A stretch of 31,948 nucleotides of DNA, taken from positions 1 to 31,948 of the IMG/VR virus record IMGVR_UViG_3300032401_000049; one strand, written 5' to 3'. Position 1 is the first letter of the stretch, and the number at the start of each line of letters is the position of its first letter. A program made the translations under genes and the position numbers. Below the pieces are notes generated by a model. That model made no database searches. It worked only from the letters and a program-made list of their open reading frames with translations, and was not told the origin of the DNA. This stretch comes from a virus. Below are positions 24,441-26,314 of the stretch, in pieces.

Positions 24441-24459
24441 ATTGTCTACTATCCCGCCC

Positions 24460-24993
24460 ATGCGATCCCTCAGACAGATTATCGACGAGGCTGTTAAAGA
24501 GCAATATGGCGGGATGAGTCCTAGGCCCCGCCCTTTCTCTCCCGGAAACAAGGTTTCAGACCGCGAGAAATATTCAAAAGAATTCCTCTCTCAAATTAAA
24601 AACGCCGGGCTCACCACTCCAATCGAAGAACATCGCTTCCACCCAACCCGGATGTGGAGATTTGATTTCGCCTATGTTGAGCATAAGATTGCCATTGAGA
24701 TCGATGGTGGCGGATGGGGAAGGCCGGTTGTATGCCACCATTGCCGCCAGACCGTCCTCCGCTTTAGCAATGGTCGACCCTATCCGGTCCGGGAAGGCGG
24801 TCGCCATCACACGGCCAAGGGAGCCGAGTCCGACAACGAGAAATTCAACGAGGCGATGCGTTTCGGATGGCGGGTCCTCCGGTTTAATCCTTGCCATATT
24901 AAAAGCGGATACGCCATAGAACTTGTCAAGGAAATCATCGGGACTGGAAATACTCAAAAAAAAGTTCTTGCAATTCCTGAAACGGTTTTGTAG
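24460..24993 (+). CDS. VSR/DUF559-like endonuclease
   Basis: A 177-residue PD-(D/E)XK-type nuclease. The core reads E-E-H-R-F ... W-R-F-D-F-A-Y (Asp69), then I-A-I-E-I-D-G-G (Glu80, Asp82), and later G-R-H-H-T ... D-N-E-K-F-N-E-A ... G-W-R-V-L-R-F, the pattern of phage-encoded VSR-like/DUF559 enzymes. Between the core and G-R-H-H there is an insertion with C-H-H-C (residues 92-95) that may bind zinc together with nearby histidines. An upstream in-frame start at 24298 would overlap the adhesin; ATG 24460 and TTG 24442 are alternatives, and neither has a good ribosome site. It may nick DNA, help packaging or act as a free-standing mobile nuclease. It is the last gene before the terminator. Confidence 0.68.
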   Translation: MRSLRQIIDEAVKEQYGGMSPRPRPFSPGNKVSDREKYSKEFLSQIKNAGLTTPIEEHRFHPTRMWRFDFAYVEHKIAIEIDGGGWGRPVVCHHCRQTVLRFSNGRPYPVREGGRHHTAKGAESDNEKFNEAMRFGWRVLRFNPCHIKSGYAIELVKEIIGTGNTQKKVLAIPETVL

Positions 24994-25013
24994 TTTTTTT
25001 GTCGATATGAAAA

Positions 25014-25085
25014 TGGGGAACAGAAAACATATGAATTTTGAGGTGGAGGGACCTGTTCCCCAGAATAGTTTTACCTTCCACCTCA
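25014..25085 (+). ncRNA. H-type RNA pseudoknot at end of late operon
   Basis: Two inverted repeats interlock. Stem 1: TGGGGAACAG (25014-25023) pairs perfectly with CTGTTCCCCA (25053-25062), 10 bp. Stem 2: TGAGGTGGAGGG (25039-25050) pairs with CCTTCCACCTCA (25074-25085), 12 bp with one G-U. Loops are 15 nt (25024-25038), 2 nt (25051-25052) and 11 nt A/T-rich (25063-25073), long enough to cross the grooves. The block starts 20 nt after the nuclease stop and ends 1 nt before a terminator hairpin, so it would form the 3' end of the late transcript or of a released small RNA. Pairing is seen directly; folding as a pseudoknot rather than alternative hairpins is inferred. Confidence 0.7.
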
Positions 25086-25086
25086 C

Positions 25087-25125
25087 AAATCCCTGCCGGA
25101 GAAATTCGACGGGGATTTTTTATTT
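25087..25125 (+). terminator. Intrinsic terminator with GNRA loop
   Basis: Arms 25087-25100 and 25105-25118 pair over 14 positions (AAATCCC against GGGATTT at the base, one C/A mismatch, two G-U pairs) around a GAAA tetraloop at 25101-25104. TTTATTT follows at 25119-25125; with the last three T of the arm this gives a TTTTTT run. It should end the late (structural/lysis) transcript and separate it from the second operon. Confidence 0.85.
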
Positions 25126-25480
25126 ACAGGGACAGCAATCAATCGACGCTCGACAACCCTTAAAAATGGCGAAGAGACGAGTAGAAACCCAGAAAGATTC
25201 CTTAGCCCGGGCAAGTGATCGGCTTAACCCCCGGCCAAATTCCGTAAGATGTTTTTTCAAATAAACGAATCTTTAACAAAGATTTAGTCTTTCTGGTAGG
25301 CAGGACAAAGCCTTTAAGTATGCCAATACGGAGACTCTCAGAGAAAGGGAGAGAGTGAATAGGCAGGTCGTCATGTAAGTTATCTGATCCTCTTACGGAG
25401 AGGATAAGCCGTAATATGTCCAGACAGAGAAGTTGAAGAAAAAAGACGAAAATTTCTTAAAATTCACGGAGGGAAAAAAC
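25126..25480 (+). other. Non-coding region upstream of the recombination operon
   Basis: About 355 bases without a supportable gene. It holds a short perfect hairpin at 25268-25284 (AATCTTT-AAC-AAAGATT), an ACTCTC/GAGAGT inverted repeat near 25334-25356, a hairpin at 25387-25405 (ATCCTCT-TACGG-AGAGGAT) and a competing TTACGG/CCGTAA pairing at 25393-25414. A motif set is duplicated (next entry). The promoter of the downstream operon must lie here or upstream, but I find no convincing -35/-10 pair. Leader RNA, operator array or replication origin are all possible. A 113-codon open frame crossing the terminator and this region (24923-25264) looks like chance. Confidence 0.55.
25297..25401 (+). 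repeat. Ordered duplicated motif set in the leader region
   Basis: Three short motifs recur in the same order. Copy 1: TAGGCAGG (25297-25304), TAAGTAT (25315-25321), TACGGAGA (25327-25334). Copy 2: TAGGCAGG (25360-25367), TAAGTTAT (25376-25383), TACGGAGA (25394-25401). Offsets between copies are 63, 61 and 67 nt. The sequence between the motifs differs. This fits two copies of a protein-binding or RNA element ahead of the operon. Confidence 0.55.
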
Positions 25481-26314
25481 ATGGAAAACGCGATGGTTCA
25501 AAATGAAAGCGGAACACCGATCGAGCGAGGGCAGGGACCCGCCGCCAATTCAAAAATACTCGAGGTGATGATGGATCGGGCGATCCGCTATCCCCGCGAC
25601 GAATACAAGGCTCTTGAGAAGGCTTTGCAGGAACTCGAAAAGGTCCCCGGGCTGGCAGAGGACGCTTATTACTCGATCCCCTATGAGAACTCCGACACGG
25701 GGAAGAAGGTTCCGGTCGAGGGCCTCACGATCGGTTCATCCCTGGCCCTGATTCGATTTTGGGGCAACGCGGTATCGGGAGGGAGAATCACATCCGAAGA
25801 CGATAAGGGATGGGAGCTTGAGGGATTCGCCTACGATCTTGAAAACAACATCCTGATTCAAAAGCCTTTCCGGGTTTCCAAGTTCTATAAGCCCCGGGGC
25901 GGACAGGGCGTGATGCCCTTGTCGCATGATCGCCGGGTGGTTATTTTGCAGGCCGGTGTCTCGAAGGCTCAGCGCAACGCCGCACTCGCCATCATTCCGA
26001 ATTGGGCCAGAGACGCTTATTTCAACCGCGCCAAACAGCTTGTCTTGAATCCGCCCAAGTCCCATGTGAAGGTCGAGAAGTCCCTTCAAGAGAAAATCAT
26101 CGACGTGAAAAATGCCTTTCGAAAGATGTGGAACGTGACCGATATTGAGATGCAGGACTATATAAACGGCCTTGGTGATGTGGAGACAGATGAGGCTCTC
26201 TACGTTCACCTCGTGGGGCTCGGCAAAGGAATCAAAGAGGGCCGGGCAAACCCTGATGAGGTCTTCGGGCGCGTGAAGGCCCAGCCAGCGATGCCGACAG
26301 AGGTGGACCAATGA
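25481..26314 (+). CDS. Probable single-strand DNA annealing/recombination protein
   Basis: A 277-residue protein heading a cassette with an exonuclease-like partner. Its features match a widespread phage recombination family: A-Y-Y-S-I-P-Y (residues 62-68), V-E-G-L-T-I-G-S-S-L-A near 79-89, W-G-N-A near 94-97, A-Y-D-L-E-N-N near 117-123, and a later G-V-S-K-A-Q-R-N-A-A-L-A-I-I-P-N-W helix (159-175) resembling the R-N-A ... P segment of RecT/Rad52-like annealing proteins. GGAGGG lies 7 nt before ATG 25481; a longer TTG form from 25433 is less likely. The role is inferred from motif resemblance and neighbours. Confidence 0.6.
   Translation: MENAMVQNESGTPIERGQGPAANSKILEVMMDRAIRYPRDEYKALEKALQELEKVPGLAEDAYYSIPYENSDTGKKVPVEGLTIGSSLALIRFWGNAVSGGRITSEDDKGWELEGFAYDLENNILIQKPFRVSKFYKPRGGQGVMPLSHDRRVVILQAGVSKAQRNAALAIIPNWARDAYFNRAKQLVLNPPKSHVKVEKSLQEKIIDVKNAFRKMWNVTDIEMQDYINGLGDVETDEALYVHLVGLGKGIKEGRANPDEVFGRVKAQPAMPTEVDQ

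What the first reader, a model, noticed from the sequence alone, without database searches (positions are those of the whole stretch)
25014..25125. Long interlocked pseudoknot joined to an intrinsic terminator
Two inverted repeats of 10 and 12 bp interlock in H-type order with loops of 15, 2 and 11 nt. A 14-position GNRA hairpin with a T-tract follows after one base. Chance formation of both long stems is unlikely. It could be a stable 3' end that blocks exonucleases, a phage small RNA, an antitoxin-like RNA (ToxI RNAs are pseudoknots followed by terminators), or a ligand-sensing switch between stem 1 and stem 2. I know no named RNA family that it matches.
Basis: partly seen in the sequence, partly recalled or inferred. 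Interest (0 to 1): 0.75.

Follow-up and report, generated by a model that had tools for sequence, protein, structure and literature searches.

The report
Pseudoknot-plus-terminator phage small RNA
Between the late and early genes of an uncultured phage lies a knotted RNA fold joined to a transcription stop signal; a related phage has rebuilt both knot stems with different letters that still pair, so the fold is probably real, but what it does is unknown and no catalogued RNA family matches it.

Summary
Two stems of 10 bp (25014-25023/25053-25062) and 12 bp (25039-25050/25074-25085) interlock with loops of 15, 2 and 11 nt. One base later comes a 14-position GAAA-loop hairpin with a T-tract. No 10/12 pair arose in 20 simulated windows. 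At the same junction it has 9- and 12-bp interlocked stems, loops 17/1/8, the same 1-nt spacer and the same terminator tip. In a hand structural alignment 21 of 22 pairs are kept and nine are changed on both sides. Random sequence fulfils this at that spot 2 times in 100,000. Rfam has no match. There is no type III toxin gene beside it and no tandem repeat, so it is not a ToxIN locus. The best reading is a stand-alone phage RNA of about 115 nt, because a promoter-like TTGCAA-N17-TAnnTT lies at a similar distance upstream in both phages. It is probably recognised by shape. A stabilised 3' end of late mRNA remains the main rival. Directly downstream, 25128-25425 looks like a second, larger structured RNA. 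Everything comparative rests on a single relative.

The parts
24968..24996 (+). candidate promoter TTGCAA-N17-TAGTTT (weak match to sigma-70; L002 has TTGCAA-N17-TAACTT)
   Evidence: 27/57 identities in the ungapped comparison with L002, best 40-column stretch 24 (0 of 300 shuffles reach it); not found by the consensus scan, so weak. The stop codon TAG of the upstream DUF559 gene overlaps it in the window.
25014..25023 (+). stem 1, 5' arm TGGGGAACAG
   Evidence: rebuilt as GGGAGATCC in L002
25024..25038 (+). loop 1 (15 nt) AAAACATATGAATTT; its 3' end TGAATTT is identical in L002 and complementary to the terminator tip AAATTC (possible loop-loop contact)
   Evidence: about -3.5 kcal/mol in both phages; no covariation possible because both sides are invariant
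25039..25050 (+). stem 2, 5' arm TGAGGTGGAGGG
   Evidence: AGGGGTG(C)GACAG in L002
25053..25062 (+). stem 1, 3' arm CTGTTCCCCA
   Evidence: GGATCTCCC in L002
25063..25073 (+). loop 3 (11 nt) GAATAGTTTTA
   Evidence: 8 nt AAGAAACA in L002
25074..25085 (+). stem 2, 3' arm CCTTCCACCTCA
   Evidence: CTGTCCACCCCT in L002
25087..25121 (+). intrinsic terminator: hairpin 25087-25118 with GAAA tetraloop, T-run 25116-25121; tip CGGAGAAATTCG identical in L002
25128..25425 (+). adjacent second conserved non-coding segment (candidate structured leader of the early operon); not part of the pseudoknot RNA

Best explanation
The element is a small stand-alone phage RNA of about 115 nt (about 25005 to about 25121). 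It has a short 5' leader, an H-type pseudoknot of 10 + 12 bp and a terminator hairpin one base behind it. Shown by comparison: both pseudoknot stems and the terminator are maintained as structure while the stem sequences drift. Inferred: it is transcribed from its own promoter, and it ends at the T-tract as a compact, exonuclease-resistant RNA. Also inferred: it works by its shape plus the conserved single-stranded loop 1 and terminator tip, most likely by binding a host or phage protein rather than by pairing with an mRNA through the stems.
For: Exact structure and low chance probability. The relative L002 keeps the same architecture at the homologous junction with rebuilt stems: 21/22 pairs kept and nine double changes in a hand structural alignment. 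Chance of such a structure at the spot in random sequence of the same composition is 2/100,000. Terminator tip and the 3' half of loop 1 are invariant while the stems change. TTGCAA-N17-TAnnTT lies 46 nt (window) and 43 nt (L002) before stem 1. The element is not tied to the upstream stop codon: about 20 nt after it in the window, about 171 nt in L002. L002 also has a separate GC-rich hairpin followed by UUAUUUU between that stop and the element, so late transcription may end before the small RNA starts. The possible ORF is not kept in frame: the terminator block is in phase 0 versus 1.
Against: Only one relative was found, so covariation rests on a single comparison. The promoter match is poor: 4/6 and 3/6 to sigma-70 hexamers, and not flagged by the scan. 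Its 60% identity over the best 40 columns is no higher than the flanking gene region (66%), so it may be ordinary homology. No expression data exist, the host is unknown, and no partner was identified. The window lacks a separate upstream terminator, so here the element could equally be the end of the late mRNA.
Confidence: 0.48

Rival explanations
1. A reinforced 3' end and insulator. The pseudoknot plus terminator ends the late-operon mRNA, blocks 3'-to-5' exonucleases, and keeps late transcription out of the early operon on the same strand.
For: Location at the end of the late cluster directly before the early cluster, same strand. Spacer of exactly one base between S2 and the terminator in both phages. 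Shape kept, sequence not, as expected for a mechanical block.
Against: An intrinsic terminator alone normally suffices. In L002 another terminator-like hairpin precedes it and it lies about 171 nt from the gene. The conserved promoter-like motif and invariant loop 1 end are unexplained.
Confidence: 0.3
2. A conditional attenuator. The pseudoknot senses something and controls termination, and so read-through into the 25128-25425 leader and the early genes.
For: In the window the terminator is followed after only about 6 nt by a conserved structured leader, and no separate promoter for it is evident. Loop 1 TGAATTT could pair with the terminator tip.
Against: No anti-terminator pairing competes with the lower terminator stem, and loop 1 pairing with the tip is only about -3.5 kcal/mol. 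Stem sequences and most loops are not conserved. In L002 more than 100 nt of unrelated sequence separates terminator and leader.
Confidence: 0.1
3. A ToxI-like decoy: a phage pseudoknot that neutralises a host type III (ToxN/CptN/TenpN) toxin.
For: Type III antitoxins are H-type pseudoknots followed by a Rho-independent terminator (PMC5086642). The title and abstract of PMC3475682 report a phage that evades ToxIN through RNA mimicry.
Against: No tandem repeats. Stems of 10 and 12 bp are much longer than those of ToxI (the latter from memory). ToxI model RF02519 does not match the element in either phage; the only ToxI hit, at E 1.9, is elsewhere in L002 on the other strand. No toxin gene found.
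Confidence: 0.06
4. Chance complementarity with an ordinary terminator.
For: Interlocked stems of 8-9 bp are common by chance in this window.
Against: 10/12 bp did not occur in 20 simulated windows, and the relative independently has interlocked stems with rebuilt sequence.
Confidence: 0.03

Closest known systems
Type III antitoxin RNAs (ToxI, CptI, TenpI)
   Same: H-type pseudoknot of an RNA upstream of a Rho-independent terminator
   Different: single copy, stems of 10 and 12 bp, no repeat array, no toxin gene, flanked by late and recombination genes; no ToxI model match in the element
Phage-encoded small RNAs as a kind (e.g. DicF, c4, STnc6030, reviewed in PMC12197685)
   Same: small non-coding RNA in a phage genome ending at an intrinsic terminator (inferred here)
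   Different: those described in the passages read act by antisense pairing; this one puts most bases into a pseudoknot, leaving only loops free; no homology found
Rfam RF01470 rli38 (Listeria sRNA)
   Same: best sub-threshold match: leader and terminator hairpin in similar places
   Different: 25.7 bits against a cut-off of 49, E 0.23, and 20 bits in L002; treated as chance
Pseudoknot riboswitches (preQ1-II/III, SAM-II; from memory)
   Same: H-type pseudoknots near expression platforms
   Different: no Rfam match; no conserved ligand core; the stems are not mutually exclusive with the terminator

Membership tests
Type III toxin-antitoxin RNA (ToxI/CptI/TenpI) | H-type pseudoknot | tested here: met
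Type III toxin-antitoxin RNA (ToxI/CptI/TenpI) | tandem array of nucleotide repeats (PMC5086642) | tested here: not met
   no tandem repeats in 24900-25500
Type III toxin-antitoxin RNA (ToxI/CptI/TenpI) | toxin gene directly after the terminator | tested here: not met
   the next gene is phrog_3657; no PADLOC toxin among 8 nearby proteins. The PF13958 search was empty but its control genomes were empty too, so that part is inconclusive.
Type III toxin-antitoxin RNA (ToxI/CptI/TenpI) | match to the Rfam ToxI model (RF02519) | tested here: not met
   none in window up to E 5; E 1.9 in L002, minus strand, outside the element
Any Rfam 15 family | score above the curated gathering threshold | tested here: not met
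Phage small RNA (as a kind) | conserved RNA structure | tested here: met
   one relative only
Phage small RNA (as a kind) | own promoter and 5' end | tested here: inconclusive
   conserved TTGCAA-N17-TAnnTT; weak consensus
Phage small RNA (as a kind) | expression as a discrete transcript | not testable with these tools
   needs RNA-seq or Northern blot of infected cells

The most novel reading that the evidence does not exclude
The junction is a phage non-coding RNA island: an unnamed pseudoknot small RNA built to bind and block a host protein (for instance a defence ribonuclease), next to a second, large pseudoknotted RNA of about 300 nt that leads the early operon. Neither belongs to a described family.
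Probability: 0.12. Interest if true: 0.8.

Novelty: new variant of a known kind. Interest (0 to 1): 0.5.

Why it matters
If expressed, this would be a phage RNA whose maintained feature is a long H-type pseudoknot fused to its terminator, a layout shared in outline with antitoxin RNAs but without toxin or repeats. It would give a compact test case for how phages use pseudoknots (protein decoys, exonuclease blocks) outside type III systems. It also shows that a first-pass reading of raw sequence can pick out a structure that comparison supports and Rfam does not contain.

Tried and rejected
More relatives were sought without success. Eight viral-contig scans (proteins of both flanking genes, alignments, three DNA patterns) returned only contig IMGVR_UViG_3300035659_000453 as a true relative. 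Two genome-contig scans gave nothing related. Distant blastn against phages and plasmids found nothing. L006 and L013 are judged chance matches to the short patterns. Distant relatives of neighbouring genes (L009, L010, Paenibacillus phage Lilo L012) lack the element. Reading as a small protein from ATG 25007 was rejected: the conserved terminator block is in a different phase in L002 and the two translations do not match. tRNA and tmRNA: none. AlphaFold of the downstream phrog_3657 protein had pLDDT 47 and was not used. A stem-1/stem-2 switch was rejected because the stems are compatible. MAFFT misplaces the 3' arm of stem 2, so pairs were counted on a hand structural alignment, which chooses the register in the structure's favour; the simulation is the fairer number (the positive-control line and 9/12 run used a wrongly cut region and were redone).

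Full report
The window is a 31,948-base record of an uncultured virus. Its genes read left to right on the plus strand: terminase, portal, head and tail genes, then a DUF559 gene ending at 24993, then from 25481 a gene of family phrog_3657 followed by a PD-(D/E)XK exonuclease and further early-type genes. The finding lies in the large gap between the two clusters.

Stem 1 pairs 25014-25023 with 25053-25062 (10 bp). Stem 2 pairs 25039-25050 with 25074-25085 (12 bp, one G-U). The loops are 15, 2 and 11 nt, and after C25086 a hairpin 25087-25118 with a GAAA tetraloop and T25116-25121 follows. Interlocked stems of 8 bp occur about 11 times per strand by chance in sequence of this composition and of 9 bp 0.6 times, but a 10/12 pair did not occur in 20 simulations. 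A scan for a pseudoknot directly before a terminator finds only this place in the window, on both strands. Rfam has no match at its curated thresholds; sub-threshold matches are weak.

One relative was found, contig IMGVR_UViG_3300035659_000453 (L002 and other loci), 89% identical in the phrog_3657 protein and about 66% identical in DNA over most of the late genes before the junction. At the same junction it carries stem 1 at 2417-2425/2457-2465 (9 bp) and stem 2 at 2443-2449 plus 2451-2455 with 2474-2485 (12 bp, one bulged C). Its loops are 17, 1 and 8 nt, with a C spacer and a terminator with the identical tip CGGAGAAATTCG. In a hand structural alignment 21 of 22 pseudoknot pairs remain standard pairs and nine have both sides changed. 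Because a hand alignment favours the structure, a second test asked how often random sequence with the same dinucleotide make-up has such stems ending at that spot: 2 in 100,000. I take the pseudoknot as real, with the caveat that this is one comparison.

What is conserved in letters is instructive. The arms of both stems differ, while the terminator tip and the 3' part of loop 1 (TGAATTT) are unchanged. These two segments are complementary (about -3.5 kcal/mol in both phages) and might touch; invariance means covariation cannot test it. A promoter-like TTGCAA-N17-TAnnTT lies 46 and 43 nt before stem 1 in the two phages. It is a poor sigma-70 match and the consensus scan does not report it; its identity is no higher than that of the flanking homologous DNA, so it is only a lead. 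In L002 the element lies about 171 nt beyond the DUF559 stop, and a strong hairpin followed by UUAUUUU sits between them, which suits an independent transcription unit. A small protein is unlikely: the frame is not kept.

Mechanism. Shown: conserved pseudoknot plus terminator on the plus strand. Inferred: a discrete RNA of about 115 nt, resistant to 3' exonucleases, recognised by shape with loop 1 and the terminator tip as likely contacts, most likely by a protein. The main rival is a reinforced 3' end and insulator of the late mRNA. A switch is disfavoured because the two stems can coexist, share no bases with the terminator stem, and are not conserved in sequence. ToxI membership fails on repeats, toxin gene and model match (definition from PMC5086642), although working like a protein-blocking pseudoknot is not excluded.

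Beside the finding, 25128-25425 (L002 2656-2940) is a second conserved non-coding segment. It includes a block of about 54 identical bases and helices kept in both phages: 25189-25199/25286-25296, with a matched one-pair deletion in L002; 25240-25249/25391-25400, with one compensated pair; and 25220-25226/25405-25411. The first crosses the other two. Its minimum free energy is not better than shuffles, and interlocked 9-bp stems occur in 4% of random sequences of its length, so the evidence is moderate. No Rfam family matches it convincingly even at E up to 5; the only hits touching it are a weak human lncRNA match at its 3' flank and a weak minus-strand ToxI match in L002. It may be a structured leader of the early operon and deserves its own study.

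Noticed in passing
window 25128-25425; L002 2656-2940: Highly conserved non-coding segment before the early operon, with a block of about 54 identical bases and long-range crossing helices kept in both phages (one compensated pair, one matched pair deletion). Candidate large structured RNA or leader without an Rfam family.
   Followed up: partly
window 25387-25414; L002 2909-2933: TTACGG (25393-25398) can pair with CCGTAA (25409-25414) or, as part of TCTTACGGAG, with TTCCGTAAGA (25240-25249). All three segments change together in L002 (TCACGG, CCGTGA, TTCCGTGAGA), which suggests alternative structures.
   Followed up: partly
L002 2315-2357: Strong GC-rich hairpin followed by UUAUUUU between the DUF559 stop and the pseudoknot element; terminator-like, absent from the window.
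   Followed up: partly
window 24451-24993: DUF559-family (phrog_503) protein at the end of the late cluster; its last codons in the window overlap the promoter-like motif, whereas in L002 the gene ends about 128 nt before the motif.
   Followed up: no
window 25481-26311: phrog_3657 protein of unknown function, near an exonuclease gene here and beside AAA ATPases and a PD-(D/E)XK protein in Paenibacillus phage Lilo, a position typical of a recombinase or single-strand DNA binder.
   Followed up: partly
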